A stretch of 64,000 bases of DNA, taken from positions 1 to 64,000 of the forward strand of contig NZ_JANKZF010000011.1 in NCBI RefSeq assembly GCF_027568515.1, in the 5' to 3' direction. Positions 37,070-43,494 of this stretch are shown here, piece by piece. The translations under genes and the position numbers were made by a program. The notes under the pieces were generated by a model. That model had not been told where the DNA came from, made no database searches, and saw only the letters and a program-made list of their open reading frames with translations. How positions within the stretch are numbered: position 1 is the stretch's first letter; each line of letters begins with the position of its first letter. Origin of the DNA: Arthrobacter sp. HY1533. GTDB lineage: Bacteria > Actinomycetota > Actinomycetes > Actinomycetales > Micrococcaceae.

Positions 37070-37852
37070 ATGATTGAGTTTTCCGTAGGTGACGGCGTGG
37101 CCGAGATTGTGCTCTATGCACCGCACAAGCTCAACGTGCTGGATGAAGCCGGGCTCGCGGAGCTCTCCGCCGTCTACGACGAGGCCGGTGCTGCCGTCTC
37201 CGCGGGCACTGTCCGGGCGCTGCTCATCCGCGGTGAGGGGCGGGCGTTTTGTGCCGGCCGCGACATTGCCGGGGTGGACGGGGCCAATGACGACGCCCGC
37301 GGCTACCTCGAGGAATTGCTGACGCCGCTGCTGCAGAAAATGGCGGCCTTCCCGGCTCCCACCTTTGCCGCAGCCCAGGGCGCCTGCCTCGGCGTGGGGC
37401 TGGGCCTGCTCATCGCCACGGACGTGGTCTATGTTGCGGAAAACGCCAAGTTTGGCTCGCCGTTCGGCAACCTCGGCGCCACCCTGGACTCCGGCGGGCA
37501 CTGGCTTTTCACCGAAACCCTCGGCGCCCACCGCACCCTGGACCTTATTTACAGCTCGGAGCTGATCAGTGGCGCCGACGCCGTGGCCGCCGGGCTGTTC
37601 AGTCGCGCCCTGCCCGCGGAGGAACTCCTGGACTTCACCCGCGCCGCGGCAGCCAAGGCCGCAGCCGGCCCCACCCAGGCCTTCATCGCCAGCAAGACGC
37701 TCGTGGCTGCGATCCGCAGGGAAAGGCTGGGACTGTGGGACGCCGTCGTGCTTGAAAATGAGGCGCAGGTGGCGCTGTCCGCAACGGCCGACTACGCCGA
37801 GGGCTTTGCTGCCTTCACGGCCAAGCGGAAGCCCGGATTCACCGGCAAGTAG
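37070..37852 (+). CDS. paaG: Enoyl-CoA hydratase/isomerase, PaaG-like
   Basis: A 260-aa crotonase-fold protein. IRGEGRAFCAGRDIAGVDG and AAQGACLGVGLGLLIATDVVYVAENAKFGSPFGNLGATLDSGG are the oxyanion and active-site segments. The LDSGGHW Asp corresponds to the catalytic Asp of PaaG, which isomerises the ring epoxide to oxepin-CoA. Located directly after paaABCDE but separated by two repeat elements (180 nt), so it may be transcribed from its own promoter. GGAG before the ATG serves as the ribosome-binding site. A general enoyl-CoA hydratase is the alternative. Confidence 0.82.
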   Translation: MIEFSVGDGVAEIVLYAPHKLNVLDEAGLAELSAVYDEAGAAVSAGTVRALLIRGEGRAFCAGRDIAGVDGANDDARGYLEELLTPLLQKMAAFPAPTFAAAQGACLGVGLGLLIATDVVYVAENAKFGSPFGNLGATLDSGGHWLFTETLGAHRTLDLIYSSELISGADAVAAGLFSRALPAEELLDFTRAAAAKAAAGPTQAFIASKTLVAAIRRERLGLWDAVVLENEAQVALSATADYAEGFAAFTAKRKPGFTGK

Positions 37853-37855
37853 CCC

Positions 37856-38689
37856 CTATTTCCGGCCCGTGAAGTTTTCCATGGACTTGTAGACGCCGAA
37901 CACGCGCCCGGCCACCACATCCCAGACCGGGAGGGGCAGGATGCCGCGCAGCGCCTTGCTCAGCTGCACGGTCCAGGGCATCAGGAGCATGGGTGTGCCC
38001 TCCTTCATTGCCCGCCATACCCGCTCGGTTACCGCCTCGGGCTCCAGGAGCGGGGTCAGCAGCGGACCGCGGGCGCCCTCAAACATGCCGGTCTTGATGT
38101 ACGACGGGCAGAAAGTGGTGACCTTGATGTGGCGGTGGCCGGCCTGCTCCAGTTCAAGGCGCAGGGAATCGCTCCAGCCCACCACGGCCCACTTGGAGGA
38201 GGAGTAGATGCTCATGCGCGGGTTGGACAGCAGCCCCGCGGCCGAGGCCACGTTCACGATCCGGCTGGTGCGGCCGCCGCTGATCATGGCGGGCAGGAAC
38301 TCGCGCGTGATGTGCATCAGGGCCAGGGTGTTGATGGCCATGGTGGCGGCAATGTCGGTGCGCTGGTCGTGCTCCCAGAAGTACTTGCCGCGCACAATCC
38401 CGGCGTTGTTGATCAGGATGTCCGGGGTGCCCACCTCGCTGCGCACCCACTGCGCCGCTTCCTCGATGGCCTCGAGGCTGCTGACGTCCACCACCTGGCT
38501 GTGGATTTCCGAGCCCCGGCCGCGCAGTTCGGCGGCGGCCTCCTCAAGCGCCTGGGCATTCACGTCCCAGAGGATGACGTGCGCGGCGTGGTCGCGCACG
38601 GCCAGCTGGGCGTACATCTTGCCCATTCCCATGGCGGCACCCGTGATCAGGACGGTGGCGTTGGCAAGGGATTCTATGGTGCCGGTCAT
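37856..38689 (-). CDS. Short-chain dehydrogenase, classical SDR
   Basis: A 277-aa NAD(P)-dependent reductase. TVLITGAAMGMGKMYAQLAV is the TGxxxGxG cofactor motif, NNAG is intact (ILINNAGIVRG), and the YSSSK active-site pair is present (Tyr and Lys in SIYSSSKWAVVG). The C-terminal hydrophobic stretch (MLLMPWTVQLSKALRGILPLPVWDVVAG) suggests membrane association, as in retinol- or acyl-DHAP-reductase-like SDRs. The start overlaps the stop of the upstream flavoprotein gene by 4 nt, so the two are coupled. A reductase for alkyl- or acyl-dihydroxyacetone phosphate is a reasonable guess from this pairing. Confidence 0.85.
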   Translation of the reverse strand: MTGTIESLANATVLITGAAMGMGKMYAQLAVRDHAAHVILWDVNAQALEEAAAELRGRGSEIHSQVVDVSSLEAIEEAAQWVRSEVGTPDILINNAGIVRGKYFWEHDQRTDIAATMAINTLALMHITREFLPAMISGGRTSRIVNVASAAGLLSNPRMSIYSSSKWAVVGWSDSLRLELEQAGHRHIKVTTFCPSYIKTGMFEGARGPLLTPLLEPEAVTERVWRAMKEGTPMLLMPWTVQLSKALRGILPLPVWDVVAGRVFGVYKSMENFTGRK

Positions 38690-40362
38690 GAGTGTTCCTT
38701 GGTGTTGGAGGGGATGAGCTTGCCCGGGTTCATGATGCCGGCCGGGTCCAGTGTGTGCTTGATGCCGGCCAGGACCTTGGTGCCCAAGTCCCCAATTTCG
38801 GCGCCCAGGTACGGTGCGTGGTCGGTGCCAACAGCGTGGTGGTGGGTGATGGTGGCGCCCGCGGCAACAATGGCCCGCGAGGCGGCGTCCTTGACCCGGG
38901 CGTTCTGTGCCAGGCCGTCCTTCTCCAGCCCCGACAGGAACGTGAAGTAGAGGGAGGCGCCGTCGGAGTAGACGTGTGAGATGTGCGTCTGGACGTAGGC
39001 TCCGGCACCGTTTTCGGCCAGGGCATCGAGGATGGCATGGCGGACGCTCCGGTACGTGTCCTCGATGCGGCCCCACGTGGCGGCCGTTTCCAGCGTCTCC
39101 ACGTAGACGCCGCGCGTCAACAGCTCATCGCGCAGGTAGGGGCCGCTGAACCGCCCGTGCTCCCACGATTTTCCGGGCAGCGGACCCAGCGGGATGCCCC
39201 CGGCCCGGCGCAGGATCCGGGCGCTGCGGCGCCTGCGGGCCCGGATGGCCCGGCTGTCGCCCTCCCACACAAACAGGGCAAGGGCCGGTGTGCCCTGTCC
39301 GCGCACACCGAGGTAGCGCTGGAGGGCGCCGGTTTTCCAGCCGCCCAGCTTGAAGGTCGACGCCGTCTCGTCCGTGTCGCTCAAGCGGCACACATGCGGC
39401 ATATCGCCCCGTGCGCCGTCGTGCCTGAGCCTGCGCATGGCCTGTGCCCCGGCCTCGAAGGACGGGAAGGACCATGCTCCGTAGGCCTTGTCCGCGGGGG
39501 CGGGGGTCACCTTCACGGTGGCGCTCGTGATGACTCCCAGTGTTCCCTCGCTGCCCACCACAACGTCCAACAGCTTGGGGCCGGCCGCGGTGCCCGGGGC
39601 AGGGGAGCCGGCGTCGAACGGGCCGGCCGGAGTCTCGAGGTGGACCGCCTTCACCAGATCGTCGGAGCGGCCGTAGCCGGTGGAGGCCTGGCCGGCGGAG
39701 CGGGTTGCCACGTAGCCGCCCAGCGTTGCCTCCTGGTGGCTCTGTGGAAAATGGCCCAGGGTCAGTCCGTGAGGGGCCAGTGCGGCCTCGATTGCGGGGC
39801 CTCGGATGCCGGCCTCGAAAGTTGCCGTGCGGGACAGCGGGTCCAGCAGCAGCAGCCGGTCCATGCGCCGCATGTCCAGGGTGACCACCCCGTCAAAGGT
39901 TCCGCGCAGCGGCTCCACGCCACCCACCACGGAGGTTCCGCCGCCAAAGGCCACCACGGCCAGGTTGTGGCGGACGCACAGGGCCAGGATCTGGCCCACC
40001 TCGTCGCTGCTGCCGGGGAAAACCACGGCGTCGGGTGCGTCGAGCGCGTCCCCGCCGCGGCGGCGCATGAGGTCCGGGGTGCTCTTGCCGCCGGCATGCA
40101 GAATGCGTTCGGTGTCCCCGGTGGAGACATGCTCCGTGCCCGTGATGGCGCCCAGTTCCGCCAGCACCTCCGCGGCCAGGGATGCCGGGCCAACACGGAC
40201 GTCTGCGAGCGCCACGGGGGGATGGGCGGCCTCCACGCTGGCCAGGCGAAGCGTGCGCTGCAGGAAGGCCAGGGCGCCGGGGCTCAGCGGCTTGGCCCGC
40301 GCCGGGTCTCCCCAGCCGTGCCAGACGGACCGGGAAATTTCTTCTGTGAGATGGGTCACCAT
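38686..40362 (-). CDS. FAD-binding oxidase, alkylglycerone-phosphate-synthase-like
   Basis: A 558-aa flavoprotein of the VAO/PCMH type. DAPDAVVFPGSSDEVGQILALC followed by VVAFGGGTSVVGGVEP is the FAD PP-loop; GHFPQSHQEATLGGYVATRSAGQASTGYG and VGSEGTLGVITSATVKV follow; the C-terminus has the THHHAVG triple-His motif. That His-rich motif and the overall layout match alkyl-DHAP synthase (AGPS), which swaps the acyl of acyl-DHAP for an alkyl chain. Start taken at ATG 40362; the upstream in-frame ATG at 40389 lies beyond the divergent TetR start. Coupled to the SDR. Confidence 0.83.
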   Translation of the reverse strand: MVTHLTEEISRSVWHGWGDPARAKPLSPGALAFLQRTLRLASVEAAHPPVALADVRVGPASLAAEVLAELGAITGTEHVSTGDTERILHAGGKSTPDLMRRRGGDALDAPDAVVFPGSSDEVGQILALCVRHNLAVVAFGGGTSVVGGVEPLRGTFDGVVTLDMRRMDRLLLLDPLSRTATFEAGIRGPAIEAALAPHGLTLGHFPQSHQEATLGGYVATRSAGQASTGYGRSDDLVKAVHLETPAGPFDAGSPAPGTAAGPKLLDVVVGSEGTLGVITSATVKVTPAPADKAYGAWSFPSFEAGAQAMRRLRHDGARGDMPHVCRLSDTDETASTFKLGGWKTGALQRYLGVRGQGTPALALFVWEGDSRAIRARRRRSARILRRAGGIPLGPLPGKSWEHGRFSGPYLRDELLTRGVYVETLETAATWGRIEDTYRSVRHAILDALAENGAGAYVQTHISHVYSDGASLYFTFLSGLEKDGLAQNARVKDAASRAIVAAGATITHHHAVGTDHAPYLGAEIGDLGTKVLAGIKHTLDPAGIMNPGKLIPSNTKEHS

Positions 40363-40379
40363 GAGATACAGTGTGACAC
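40363..40379. promoter_or_regulatory. 17-bp divergent control region
   Basis: Only 17 nt separate the starts of the flavoprotein and tetR genes. TACAGT (40367-40372) ends 7 nt before the tetR ATG at 40380, so that mRNA is probably leaderless. On the other strand CACACT is the best -10 at the same spacing to the ATG at 40362. GTGAC..GTCAC (40373-40377 with 40384-40388) could be the TetR site. Confidence 0.5.
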
Positions 40380-40985
40380 ATGACGTCACAACGTACCAGC
40401 CCGCAGGTTGATGAAACGCTGCTCGCCGCCATCAGGGACTCCGTGGTGCTCCACGGCGTCCGGCGCACCACGGCCAACGACATCGCCGAGCGGGCCGGCA
40501 TGTCCCGCATGACGTTTTACCGCCGCATGGGATCGGTGGAGAACGCAGTCCTGGCAGCCCTGACCCAGGAGTTCCGTTCCTACACAGCCAGCGTGCACCA
40601 AGGCAGCCCGGCCGGCACGGGCCGCCAGCAGCTGGTCCACTTCGCCGTGGAAAGCGTGCGGGTGTTCGCCACCTCGGAACTGCTGGCCTCCATCGCCGAA
40701 CGCGACCCGGAGTTCCTCATCCCCTATGTGACCGACAGGTTCGGGGCCAGCCAGCAGCTGATCCTGGATGATCTGCACACCATGCTTGACGCCGGGATTG
40801 CCGACGGCAGCATCGAGGCGGGCAACGGCACGCCCACCGCCCTGCTGCTTGCCGTACAGGGCGTGGCCTTGTCATCGCGGGTCCTGCTGAAAATGGGCAC
40901 CTTCGATGACACGCTCACGGAACTGGGCAAGATGCTGGAACGCTACCTCACGCCGTCGAGCCCGAAGGCCACGGTGCTCGCATGA
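40380..40985 (+). CDS. TetR-family regulator
   Basis: A 201-aa TetR protein with the helix-turn-helix at about 15-58 (LLAAIRDSVVLHGVRRTTANDIAERAGMSRMTFYRRMGSVENAVLAAL). Its divergent position and the 17-bp intergenic region make it the likely local repressor of the flavoprotein/SDR unit and of its own unit with glpD and the lipid kinase. Ligand probably lipid-like. A TetR gene holds the equivalent place next to glpD1 and a flavoprotein in mycobacteria, as far as I recall. Its stop overlaps glpD by 4 nt. Confidence 0.87.
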   Translation: MTSQRTSPQVDETLLAAIRDSVVLHGVRRTTANDIAERAGMSRMTFYRRMGSVENAVLAALTQEFRSYTASVHQGSPAGTGRQQLVHFAVESVRVFATSELLASIAERDPEFLIPYVTDRFGASQQLILDDLHTMLDAGIADGSIEAGNGTPTALLLAVQGVALSSRVLLKMGTFDDTLTELGKMLERYLTPSSPKATVLA

Positions 40986-42562
40986 CCCCGGACGCCCCCA
41001 ACCGCAGCTGGATCAATGACGCAAGCCGCCGGCGTTCGCTGGAGCATGTAGCCGGGCATACCGTGGACGTGGCCGTGGTGGGCGGCGGAATCACGGGGGC
41101 CGGCGTGGCCCTCGACGCGGCGAGCCGGGGCCTGAGCGTGGCCCTGCTGGAGAGCCGCGACCTGGCGTCCGGAACCAGCGGCTACAGTTCCAAGCTGGTC
41201 CACGGCGGTCTGCGCTACCTGGCCAAGATGGACTTCGCCGTGGCCTGGGAATCGGCCGTGGAGCGGCGCTGGCTCATGGACAGGATCGCCCCCCACCTGG
41301 TCCACCCCCTGGGCTTTGTCATTCCGGACGCCCGCAGCGCCCCCGCCTGGGAAGGGCTGGTGGCCGGGTTCGGCGTGGTGGTCTACGACGCACTGCGCAG
41401 GCTCTCCGGGCTTCGCAGCACGGTGCTGCCCCGTCCCCAGCTGCTCTCCAGCCAGGCCGTGGCGGCACTCGCCCCCGCGCTGGATGCCTCCGGACTGCGC
41501 CGCGGCTACCTGTACTGGGACGGGCAGGCCGTGGACGACGCGCGGTTGGTCCTGGGCGTGGCCCGCACCGCCGCCAGCCACGGCGCACACATCCTGCGCG
41601 ACGTTCAGGCCACGGCCCTGACGGCCGAATCAGTGGAAGCCGTGGACCGGCGGACCGGGGAGCCCGTGCACATCAGGGCCCGGACCGTGGTCAACGCAAC
41701 GGGCGTGTGGGCCGCCGACTTCGACCCCCAGTTGAGGGTCACCCCCAGCCGCGGCACACACCTCGTGGTGCGGGCCAGTCGGATGGGCAATCCCCACGCC
41801 GCGCACACCGTCGCCGTGCCTGGCCACTTTGGCAGGTACGTGTTTGTGCTGCCCCAGCCCGGCGGTGTCGTCTACATTGGGCTGACGGACGAGGAGGACC
41901 ACGCAGCCGACGGCCACCGCCCCGGCGTCCCGGAGCACGACGTCGACTTCCTCCTGGACATTGTCAACACCACCCTGTCAGTGCCCCTGGCCCGCGAAGA
42001 CGTGGTGGGCTCCTTTGCCGGGCTGCGGCCCCTGGTCGAGGCTGCACACGGCGACGGCCCCGACGGGACAGCCGACATTTCCCGCAGGCACCTCATCCGG
42101 GACACCCCGGGTGCGCCCATCACGGTGGTTGGCGGAAAAATGACCACCTACCGGCGCATGGCCCAGGACGCTGTGGATGCAGCCGTGGCCCGGCTGGGCG
42201 TTGAGGCGCCGTGCCGCACCAGGACCCTGGCGCTCGTGGGCGCCGCGACCGCTGCAGGGCTCGGTGGGATTGCGGCGCCGGACCGCCTCGTGGCCAAGTA
42301 CGGCACGGAGGCTGCGGCAGTCCAGCAACTCGGGCGCCAGGACCCCTCCCTGGCCGAACCCCTCTTTGAAGGAACGGACATCACGGGCGCTGAACTGCTG
42401 TTTGCAGTGCTCGCGGAGGGGGCCAACACCGTGGAGGACCTGCTGGAACGCCGCACCCGGCTGGCCTTTGTGCCTGCCGACGCCCGGCAGGCCCGCGGCC
42501 CCGCCGGCGCCATCCTGGCGCTCGCAGCAACGTGGGCCCCGGGAAAGGGGGCGCAGCGGTGA
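40982..42562 (+). CDS. glpD: Glycerol-3-phosphate dehydrogenase, FAD-dependent
   Basis: A 526-aa flavoprotein. VDVAVVGGGITGAGVALDAASRGLSVALLESRDLASGTSGYSSKLVHGGLRYL is the GlpD/GlpA FAD-binding start, and VVGGKMTTYRRMAQDAVDAAV the second family block. It oxidises glycerol 3-phosphate to dihydroxyacetone phosphate and feeds electrons to menaquinone at the membrane. Coupled by 4-nt overlaps to tetR upstream and to the lipid kinase downstream. Here it may supply DHAP for the AGPS-like enzyme rather than serve glycerol growth, as no glpK or glpF is near. Confidence 0.92.
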   Translation: MTPDAPNRSWINDASRRRSLEHVAGHTVDVAVVGGGITGAGVALDAASRGLSVALLESRDLASGTSGYSSKLVHGGLRYLAKMDFAVAWESAVERRWLMDRIAPHLVHPLGFVIPDARSAPAWEGLVAGFGVVVYDALRRLSGLRSTVLPRPQLLSSQAVAALAPALDASGLRRGYLYWDGQAVDDARLVLGVARTAASHGAHILRDVQATALTAESVEAVDRRTGEPVHIRARTVVNATGVWAADFDPQLRVTPSRGTHLVVRASRMGNPHAAHTVAVPGHFGRYVFVLPQPGGVVYIGLTDEEDHAADGHRPGVPEHDVDFLLDIVNTTLSVPLAREDVVGSFAGLRPLVEAAHGDGPDGTADISRRHLIRDTPGAPITVVGGKMTTYRRMAQDAVDAAVARLGVEAPCRTRTLALVGAATAAGLGGIAAPDRLVAKYGTEAAAVQQLGRQDPSLAEPLFEGTDITGAELLFAVLAEGANTVEDLLERRTRLAFVPADARQARGPAGAILALAATWAPGKGAQR

Positions 42563-43494
42563 CGGCCCCCGGCGCGGGAGCACGGCACGGCGGCCCGGCC
42601 CCATCCGGCGGCGCGGCCCTGCTGCTGGTCAATCCGACCTCCGGCCGCGGCCGCGGGCTGCGGCTGCTGCCACGGACGGCCGAGGCATTGCGCTCCGCCG
42701 GATACCGCCTCGAGGTGTCCACCACCGAAAGCCTGGCCGACGCCACGGAGCAGGCGCGCCGGGCGCCGGCCGGAACCCTCGTGGCAGTCCTGGGTGGTGA
42801 CGGCTTCCTGGGCGCCGCCGCAACAGGGGCGGGCGAGTCGGGCGCCGTCGTGCTCCCCCTGGCCGGTGGACGAGGCAACGACACTGTGCGCCGGCTGGGA
42901 CTGGCCCTTGACCCGGTCAAGGCCGTCCAGTCCATTGACCGCCTGGCCGTGCGCGAAATTGACCTGGGCCTGGCCAACGGACGTCCTTACCTGGGCGTGG
43001 CCAACGTGGGCTTCGACGGCCTCGCCAACGAATACGGCAACAATGCGCGCCTGAACCTGGGCCCGTTCGTGTACCTGTACGGCGGCATCAAGGCCTTCCT
43101 TGAGTGGAAGGACGTGACCTTCACGGTGTCCGTGGACGGCCGGGAAACCACCTTTCCGGGGTGGTTTGTGGCCGTGGGCAATGTGGGCCAGTACGGGGGA
43201 GGGCTGCGGATCTGCCCGCAGGCCGCGGCCGACGACGGATTGCTGGACGTGGTGTCGCTGGGCCGGGCCACGGTGCTCGGGGTGGCGGCCACGTTCCTGC
43301 GCTCCTACAGGGGCGGCCACCTGGGCCAGGCCAACATCAGCTTTGCCAGGGGCAGCGCCGTCACCATCAGTGCCAGCAAGCCGCTGAACCTCTATGCCGA
43401 CGGGGAAAGGGTGGCTGCCCTGCCCGCCCGGATGGAAATCGCCCCCCGGGCCGTGCGGGTCCTTGTCCCTGCGGGGTCGGCCGCCCTTTCCTGA
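42559..43494 (+). CDS. Diacylglycerol-kinase-family lipid kinase
   Basis: A 311-aa DAGK catalytic-fold protein. LLLVNPTSGRGRG, VAVLGGDGFLGAA (GGDG nucleotide motif) and LPLAGGRGNDTVRRLG are the conserved motifs; the last is usually GTGND, here AGGRGND. LANEYGNN and YGGIKAFLEWKDVTFTVSVDG are typical of actinobacterial YegS/DgkB-like kinases. It phosphorylates diacylglycerol or another lipid alcohol to the phosphatidate. I take the GTG at 42559 (GTGA overlap with glpD, AAAGGGGG upstream). An upstream GTG at 42532 is possible. Confidence 0.87.
   Translation: MTAPGAGARHGGPAPSGGAALLLVNPTSGRGRGLRLLPRTAEALRSAGYRLEVSTTESLADATEQARRAPAGTLVAVLGGDGFLGAAATGAGESGAVVLPLAGGRGNDTVRRLGLALDPVKAVQSIDRLAVREIDLGLANGRPYLGVANVGFDGLANEYGNNARLNLGPFVYLYGGIKAFLEWKDVTFTVSVDGRETTFPGWFVAVGNVGQYGGGLRICPQAAADDGLLDVVSLGRATVLGVAATFLRSYRGGHLGQANISFARGSAVTISASKPLNLYADGERVAALPARMEIAPRAVRVLVPAGSAALS

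What the first reader, a model, noticed from the sequence alone, without database searches (positions are those of the whole stretch)
37856..43494. AGPS-like, SDR, TetR, GlpD and lipid-kinase module
In animals AGPS makes alkyl-DHAP and an SDR (DHRS7B) reduces it. Here an AGPS-like flavoprotein with the HHH motif is coupled to an SDR, and divergent to TetR, GlpD (DHAP source) and a DAG kinase. As I recall, glpD1, a TetR gene, a flavoprotein and a DAG kinase are also neighbours in mycobacteria. The set would suit synthesis or recycling of ether-linked glycerolipids, a pathway hardly described in actinobacteria.
Basis: inference. Interest (0 to 1): 0.72.

Follow-up and report, generated by a model that had tools for sequence, protein, structure and literature searches.

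The report
Actinobacterial AGPS-like glycerolipid gene module
A soil bacterium carries a widely conserved, probably self-regulated set of genes built around a relative of the enzyme that animals use to make ether lipids, and the gene neighbours suggest that here it more likely salvages or breaks such lipids than makes them.

Summary
An AGPS-like flavoenzyme and an SDR overlap by ATGA, divergent from an overlapping TetR-GlpD-lipid-kinase operon. The SDR is a Micrococcaceae addition. A palindromic operator lies between the divergent genes; it occurs once per genome, in exactly the 16 of 58 relatives that carry the module.

The flavoenzyme keeps the AGPS catalytic residues (R419, R515, Y578, HHH) and fold, but belongs to a clade separate from eukaryotic AGPS. 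AGPSs of that other clade, in relatives of the same order, sit with a fatty-acyl-CoA reductase and another SDR; this module does not. The genome gave no GNPAT/PlsB-type or CarF domain and no full FAR-type reductase. The module's GlpD is a second paralogue, 29% identical to the GlpK-linked one.

Related flavoenzymes elsewhere, including E. coli YgcU, recur beside a kinase and a secondary-alcohol oxidase in catabolic-looking operons. Best reading: kinase, GlpD and flavoenzyme act in series on 1-O-alkylglycerols through alkyl-DHAP, most likely releasing alcohol and DHAP. Ether-lipid synthesis remains possible. Nothing here is a biochemical proof.

The parts
37856..38689 (-). SDR (TGxxxGxG and YxxxK read by eye); candidate fatty-alcohol dehydrogenase or alkyl-DHAP reductase; Micrococcaceae-specific addition
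   Evidence: Pfam PF00106 2.2e-46; best solved relative 17-beta-HSD type XI, 4e-41; adjacent in 15 of 15 module loci of the genus; 81-87% identical in 5 of 80 named loci
38686..40362 (-). AGPS-like FAD enzyme (ORF opens at GTG 40389; ATG 40362 likely, as the upstream part overlaps the operator)
40367..40397 (-). Palindromic operator/promoter between the divergent genes; overlaps the TetR start codon
   Evidence: one site in each of the 16 module carriers among 58 relatives, control pattern 0
40380..40985 (+). TetR-family regulator, presumed autorepressor of both operons
   Evidence: PF00440 6.3e-07; position and operator
40982..42562 (+). GlpD-like FAD dehydrogenase, module-specific paralogue
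   Evidence: DAO 2.7e-55 and DAO_C 3.1e-15; G3P-site residues kept but E57A, V64A, L68A, T270L among other changes (E. coli numbering)
42559..43494 (+). YegS/Rv2252-type lipid kinase (ORF opens at GTG 42532; GTG 42559 overlaps the GlpD stop)
   Evidence: DAGK_cat 5.2e-20, YegS_C 2.6e-40; GGDGF where the family norm, recalled, is GGDGT

Best explanation
The five genes form one TetR-controlled lipid module that routes 1-O-substituted glycerols through a 1-O-substituted DHAP. Inferred steps: (1) the YegS-type kinase phosphorylates a 1-O-alkylglycerol (or diradylglycerol/monoacylglycerol) to the 3-phosphate. (2) The dedicated GlpD oxidises C2 to give 1-O-alkyl-DHAP and passes electrons to the quinone pool. 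(3) The AGPS-like flavoenzyme performs the AGPS half-reaction on that substrate: its FAD N5 holds the DHAP carbon as an iminium adduct while the C1-O bond breaks; water (or a fatty acid) then takes the place of the alcohol, giving DHAP (or acyl-DHAP) plus fatty alcohol. (4) In Micrococcaceae the SDR oxidises the freed alcohol. TetR is displaced by a lipid or its CoA or phosphate form. Shown here by sequence: gene set, overlaps, operator, conservation, catalytic residues, predicted fold, paralogy of GlpD, no match to the usual partners of synthesis that were searched. Inferred: substrates, direction, TetR binding and ligand.
For: Core of GlpD plus AGPS-like enzyme in 73 of 80 named loci (four of the seven without begin within 1.3 kb of the end of the held DNA); kinase in 66, TetR in 66. 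One operator per genome and, among 58 relatives, only in the 16 carriers, as expected of a local, substrate-responsive unit. Full AGPS catalytic set and predicted AGPS fold; the reviewed mechanism breaks the DHAP C1-O bond and passes through a flavin-DHAP iminium that a second nucleophile attacks (PMC3509576, passages). Own genome has a second GlpD beside GlpK, 29% identical, so this GlpD is not needed for glycerol or for DHAP supply. Module GlpDs keep R54, Y55, H233, R317, R332, K354 yet carry Ala at E57, V64 and L68, where the other GlpD groups mostly keep Glu, Val and Leu/Val. AGPS-like flavoenzymes of other clades recur beside an FGGY-type, glycerol or lipid kinase in 11 of 16 annotated plasmid regions viewed, and beside GlpD in 5 of 16, against 1 of 10 and 0 of 10 for GlcD-type controls. 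In 5 of the 6 rows with a kinase but no GlpD, a glycerol dehydrogenase, iron-containing alcohol dehydrogenase or SDR is in the same stretch.
Against: No substrate was tested. The measured reaction of AGPS is ether formation, and a wax-type or Acr1-type reductase or a PlsC-type acyltransferase could supply a synthetic route unseen by PF07993, PF19277 and PF10520. 8 of 21 phylum-sample genomes with a strong window-type flavoenzyme have a GPAT_C protein and one has CarF. E. coli's ygcU cluster also holds flavoprotein and FAD/4Fe-4S genes of the electron-transfer kind, which points to a redox role for that relative. Most flavoenzymes in the sugar-kinase operons lack R515, so the parallel is of layout, not of orthology. 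The three Shinella/Roseibium/Paracoccus contaminans operons are one kind and two of the 16 rows are the window's own module type, so the 11 of 16 are not independent. The GlpD changes named are 5 of 19 module-specific positions, some of which go to larger residues; they were not placed on a structure.
Confidence: 0.45

Rival explanations
1. Ether-lipid synthesis: kinase or acyltransferase gives 1-acyl-G3P, GlpD oxidises it to acyl-DHAP (a GNPAT bypass), the AGPS-like enzyme swaps the acyl for an alkyl chain, and an SDR reduces alkyl-DHAP.
For: Catalytic set and predicted fold of AGPS; SDR overlapping it in Micrococcaceae; AGPS plus SDR is also the layout of the eukaryote-like AGPS clade; GPAT_C in 8 of 21 carriers of the phylum sample.
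Against: Not in the AGPS clade; no FAR or synthesis-type SDR at 1e-20 in any of 80 module loci; no GPAT_C or CarF and only a weak partial FAR-type match in the genome; window SDR 27% identical to the synthesis SDR; patchy in the genus (15 of 23).
Confidence: 0.27
2. The flavoenzyme is a dehydrogenase of a 2-hydroxy acid or phosphorylated sugar acid, and its GlpD and kinase neighbours serve that route.
Confidence: 0.15
3. A glycerol or G3P utilisation and phosphatidate-recycling unit in which the flavoenzyme plays a minor part.
For: GlpD and kinase families; Rv2252 is annotated as diacylglycerol kinase.
Against: A second GlpD lies beside GlpK in the same genome; in the genus, module GlpD and flavoenzyme are present or absent together in all 23 genomes.
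Confidence: 0.08

Closest known systems
Rv2249c (glpD1)-Rv2250c-Rv2251-Rv2252 of Mycobacterium
   Same: Same four families; mycobacterial loci have the same divergent layout and operator type; the four genes each rise, log2 2.1-2.3, on inbR over-expression in BCG (PMC4564863 table passage)
   Different: No SDR of the window type there; kinase follows the flavoenzyme instead of GlpD; no reaction assigned to the flavoprotein in the passages seen
Alkylglycerone-phosphate synthase (AGPS; 4bby, 2uuu)
   Same: Predicted fold, FAD domain and catalytic residues
   Different: Separate clade; dedicated GlpD and lipid kinase beside it, no FAR beside it
FAR-SDR-AGPS cluster of relatives of the same order (L196, L197, L266) and the M. 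xanthus MXAN_1676-1674 operon (PMC9131029, passages)
   Same: AGPS-family enzyme with a reductase of the SDR or epimerase kind
   Different: Has a fatty-acyl-CoA reductase; no GlpD or lipid kinase of the window kind found beside it; SDR 27% identical
Kinase-linked AGPS-like flavoenzyme operons, including E. coli ygcU-ygcW-ygcE
   Same: Flavoenzyme with HHH (EHH in one) and a kinase, with GlpD, glycerol dehydrogenase or SDR in most
   Different: FGGY-type sugar or glycerol kinase, transporters, R515 lost in most
Alkylglycerol monooxygenase (AGMO)
   Same: Would also open the ether bond of alkylglycerols
   Different: Tetrahydrobiopterin and oxygen-dependent enzyme, said in 2021 to be the only known enzyme for this breakdown (PMC7911779, abstract and passages)

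Membership tests
AGPS (EC 2.5.1.26) | VAO-type FAD fold with AGPS as nearest solved structure | tested here: met
AGPS (EC 2.5.1.26) | Catalytic Tyr578/Tyr508, Arg419, Arg515 and HHH | tested here: met
   Tyr508 of Dictyostelium essential per PMC3509576; entry titles Tyr578Phe and Arg419His support the numbering; the roles of Arg419, Arg515 and the His triad are recalled
AGPS (EC 2.5.1.26) | Falls in one clade with eukaryotic AGPS | tested here: not met
   Dictyostelium and guinea-pig AGPS group with L022-L025 (98/98), window does not; the guinea-pig branch is long and only two eukaryotic fragments were used
AGPS (EC 2.5.1.26) | Activity on acyl-DHAP plus fatty alcohol | not testable with these tools
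   Needs enzyme assay
AGPS-dependent ether-lipid synthesis | Fatty alcohol source (FAR) and DHAP acyltransferase (GNPAT) in the genome | tested here: inconclusive
   PF19277 0 in own genome, 28 of 296 in the phylum; PF07993 one partial 4.6e-13 match; other reductase and PlsC-type families not searched
Aerobic plasmalogen pathway | CarF/TMEM189 desaturase | tested here: not met
   PF10520 without a match in own genome; 12 of 296 in the phylum sample
GlpD | G3P-site residues R54, Y55, H233, R317, R332, K354 | tested here: met
   assignment of these residues to the site is recalled
GlpD for glycerol growth | Linked to GlpK, or sole GlpD | tested here: not met
   Another GlpD at G000:C6 beside GlpK
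Rv2249c-Rv2252-type module | GlpD-TetR divergent from AGPS-like enzyme, lipid kinase nearby, shared operator | tested here: met

The most novel reading that the evidence does not exclude
AGPS chemistry run as an etherase: many bacteria, E. coli K-12 included, use a kinase and a C2 dehydrogenase to turn a glycerol ether into an R-O-DHAP, and an AGPS-family flavoenzyme then breaks the C1-O bond without oxygen or net redox change. The actinobacterial module would be the long-chain, lipid version, with a lipid kinase, a GlpD with a remodelled pocket, and a dedicated TetR.
Probability: 0.3. Interest if true: 0.85.

Novelty: new variant of a known kind. Interest (0 to 1): 0.6.

Why it matters
The module is conserved from Mycobacterium, Nocardia and Rhodococcus to Streptomyces and Arthrobacter kin, and its flavoprotein has no assigned reaction in the papers found here. 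If the reading holds, it gives these bacteria a redox-neutral way to open ether-linked glycerolipids, where a 2021 review names an oxygen- and pterin-dependent enzyme as the only one known (PMC7911779). It would also explain a recurrent gene pairing of AGPS-like flavoenzyme, kinase and C2 oxidase, seen even in E. coli K-12, and so makes the question testable in a laboratory strain.

Tried and rejected
Looked for further conserved members by comparing the ORFs of 12 chosen loci with those of all 80: I saw nothing beyond GlpD, TetR, flavoenzyme and kinase that spread beyond near kin; other high counts were frames overlapping these genes. Looked for a wider TetR regulon: none seen; one 3-mismatch site (G096) is in a genome with no flavoenzyme match at 1e-60 and is taken as chance. 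Searched the Arthrobacter polyol-operon flavoenzyme in 149 order genomes at 1e-100: none; the tool notes that without a positive control genome this shows little. A first comparison of GlpD groups took a third GlpD group as the 'canonical' one; one search added 11 more rows, 10 of them beside a GlpK (L250 is not), and lists 19 positions that differ from all groups but the four polyol-operon rows. The tree was given 80 rows, lost 8 (under 10% of columns filled) and has a bad row (L124) and long branches; only the grouping of eukaryotic AGPS with L022-L025 is used. The models gave no coordinates to the Python box, so the GlpD residues could not be placed in 3D. Paper searches; one search was swamped by unrelated 'AGPs'. 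No paper on the function of the module was found in these searches of an open-licence library; subscription papers, including a Rv2252 kinase study that I recall, were not seen.

Counting notes. The counts 73/66/66 are tblastn matches over 50 bits to the window's proteins (67 kinases at E 1e-3). Weak SDR matches (26-31%) lie in 7 further loci and are not counted as window-type. The 16 annotated AGPS-like plasmid regions viewed are H6, H7, H8, H9, H10, H11, H12, H13, H27, H28, H37, H40, H42, H47, H49, H54, picked by me for variety from records (46 and 17, some shared). H2 and H32 had no annotation and are left out. Kinase counted: H6, H7, H8, H9, H11, H12, H13, H27, H28, H37, H42; H10 has a four-carbon acid sugar kinase, not counted. 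H27's flavoenzyme has EHH. GlpD: H6, H7, H8, H12, H42. Kinase without GlpD: H9, H11, H13, H27, H28, H37; all but H27 have a listed alcohol-type dehydrogenase or SDR. No such kinase or GlpD near H40, H47, H49, H54. GlcD controls: ten annotated rows picked from 40 spread rows: one ribulokinase (H75) counted; one glycerate kinase (H72) and one anhydro-muramic acid kinase about 6 kb off (H77) not counted; no GlpD.
Full report
1. What is there. The window holds two tightly packed, divergent units. Minus strand: an AGPS-like FAD enzyme (38686 to ATG 40362, or GTG 40389) and an SDR (38689-37856) that overlap as ATGA. Plus strand: TetR (40380-40985), GlpD (40982-42562) and a YegS/Rv2252-type lipid kinase (GTG 42559 or 42532 to 43494), overlapping as ATGA and, if the later GTG is the start, GTGA. 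On one side lies an enoyl-CoA hydratase gene (37070-37852) after genes that look like phenylacetate degradation, on the other an Lrp-type regulator; these were not followed.

2. It is a real, old unit. Of these 80, 73 have a GlpD relative in the stretch, 66 a TetR and 66 the kinase; four of the seven without GlpD begin within 1.3 kb of the end of the held DNA. Genera include Mycobacterium, Mycolicibacterium, Nocardia, Rhodococcus, Streptomyces, Kitasatospora, Nonomuraea, Actinomadura, Nocardioides, Microbacterium, Promicromonospora and Paeniglutamicibacter. Outside Micrococcaceae the kinase, where present, follows the flavoenzyme; in the window and its kin it follows GlpD. The window-type SDR is in 5 of 80, all Micrococcaceae, and in 15 of 15 module loci of the genus. 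In the genus the module comes and goes as a block: flavoenzyme, GlpD and operator are found in the same 16 of 58 relatives, 15 of them among the 23 genomes of the genus.

3. Operator. The divergent region carries GTTACnnnnTGACA - 5 bases - TGTnAnACTGTAAC, an inverted repeat. With up to 3 mismatches it is in the divergent region of 66 of 80 loci and nowhere else in 1,264,063 bases on both strands. Of the 12 loci without it at 4 mismatches, 11 have no TetR match; of the 14 loci without a TetR match, 3 have the site. In the 58 relatives there is exactly one site in each of the 16 carriers and none in the other 42; the reversed control pattern gives none. In 296 genomes of the phylum 10 have a site: 9 at the module, one (G096, 3 mismatches) in a genome without a flavoenzyme match. 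Carriers of more distant families in that sample lack it. The left arm overlaps the first TetR codons and the centre holds its start codon, so part of the conservation may be coding; the symmetry and the right arm are not explained that way. TetR binding is inferred. In BCG the four orthologous genes each rise by log2 2.1-2.3 when inbR is over-expressed (PMC4564863, table passages), in line with one switch.

5. What a synthesis cluster looks like. Loci of that other clade in relatives of the same order carry, beside AGPS, a fatty-acyl-CoA reductase fused to a HAD domain and an SDR (3 of 4 genomes with FAR and SDR; the fourth, a 7.1-kb contig, with SDR only). None of the 80 module loci has either gene at 1e-20. 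The window's genome gave no GPAT_C match (GNPAT/PlsB type), no CarF match and only a partial PF07993 match at 4.6e-13, against 1.6e-45 for the FAR of a relative. These searches do not cover PlsC-type acyltransferases or Acr1/FcrA-type reductases. Against a clean split: of 21 phylum-sample genomes whose best flavoenzyme match is at or under 1.6e-135, 8 have GPAT_C and one has CarF.

6. GlpD and kinase. The genome has a second GlpD beside GlpK, 29% identical to the module's. Module GlpDs (91 rows, a few genomes twice) keep R54, Y55, H233, R317, R332 and K354 of E. coli GlpD, but have A at E57 (99%), A at V64 (100%), A at L68 (98%), G at C144 (100%) and L at T270 (98%), unlike 11 further GlpDs (10 of them beside GlpK), a third group (14 rows) and E. 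coli. These are 5 of 19 such positions; others go to larger residues (for example G112R, A329D). A remodelled pocket next to the R54/Y55 segment is suggested, not placed on a structure. The kinases carry GGDG followed by V, I, L, M or F in 63 of 67 loci, T in 2 and A in 2.

7. The wider pattern. A second AGPS-like clade in the same genus sits in operons of MFS transporter, GlpK-like kinase, GlpD and flavoenzyme, with a zinc alcohol dehydrogenase downstream (families called for L193; L191, L192 and L194 by tblastn for GlpD and flavoenzyme, and otherwise by eye, where L194 also shows what looks like an aldehyde dehydrogenase). In plasmids, AGPS-like flavoenzymes lie beside GlpD and FGGY/GlpK kinase (Paracoccus jeotgali, Novosphingobium, Microbacterium), or beside such a kinase with glycerol dehydrogenase, iron-containing alcohol dehydrogenase or SDR (Shinella, Roseibium, Paracoccus contaminans, Enterococcus, Vibrio). 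E. coli K-12 has ygcU with SDR-type ygcW, kinase ygcE and a putative antiterminator ygcP, and 5,049 of 5,426 E. coli genomes match ygcU. Of 16 annotated regions viewed, 11 have such a kinase and 5 a GlpD, against 1 and 0 of 10 GlcD-type controls; rows were picked for variety and are not independent. The common denominator is a kinase and a C2-alcohol oxidase, which together could turn R-O-glycerol into R-O-DHAP, the kind of substrate AGPS acts on.

8. Mechanism proposed. AGPS breaks the C1-O bond of acyl-DHAP, holds the carbon on flavin N5 and lets an alcohol attack (PMC3509576, passages). With alkyl-DHAP as substrate and water as second nucleophile the same steps would give alcohol and DHAP. 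For the window module: lipid kinase, then GlpD, then flavoenzyme, then SDR on the freed alcohol. The order and direction are inferred. The synthetic direction (acyl-G3P to acyl-DHAP by GlpD, then alkyl exchange) uses the same proteins and is the main rival. Against the cleavage reading: the electron-transfer type genes beside ygcU, loss of R515 in most small-substrate relatives, GPAT_C in some carriers, and the lack of any assay.

9. Novelty. The genes are known by name in mycobacteria; two papers in the library hold both Rv2251 and Rv2252, and the passages seen only report their expression. I found no description of the set as a functional unit, its operator or its reaction in the searches listed. 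I rate it a new variant of a known kind, AGPS-family DHAP chemistry in a new setting; if the cleavage reading proved right it would be a new enzymatic route.

Noticed in passing
L231:9965-15375 (E. coli K-12 MG1655 ygcU, ygcW, ygcE): E. coli K-12 has an HHH AGPS-like flavoenzyme beside an SDR-type gene, a sugar kinase, transporters, electron-transfer type genes and an antiterminator; ygcU matches in 5,049 of 5,426 genomes, annotated only as putative.
   Followed up: partly
L196:3406-9748, L197:6777-13967, L266:2705-9358: A likely genuine ether-lipid synthesis cluster in relatives of the same order: FAR-HAD fusion, SDR, eukaryote-like AGPS and, in two of the three, a histidine phosphatase.
   Followed up: partly
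L191:3003-11331, L193:3637-11962, L194:7734-15803: Arthrobacter-type operon of MFS transporter, GlpK-like kinase, GlpD, AGPS-like flavoenzyme and, nearby, alcohol or aldehyde dehydrogenase; looks like catabolism of a small glycerol derivative.
   Followed up: partly
window:42559-43494 and kinases of L061-L140: Module lipid kinases have V, I, L, M or F after GGDG in 63 of 67 loci, where Thr is the norm that I recall.
   Followed up: partly
L225:7950-11565: Methylobacterium plasmid pairs an HHH flavoenzyme with PdxA and a four-carbon acid sugar kinase, a possible sugar-acid route.
   Followed up: no
L113, L115: Module loci labelled Bifidobacterium breve MAG and Chloroflexi MAG; the first resembles the mycobacterial layout and may be misbinned.
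   Followed up: no
window:33760-37852: Genes that look like phenylacetate degradation next to the module; no link to it was seen.
   Followed up: no
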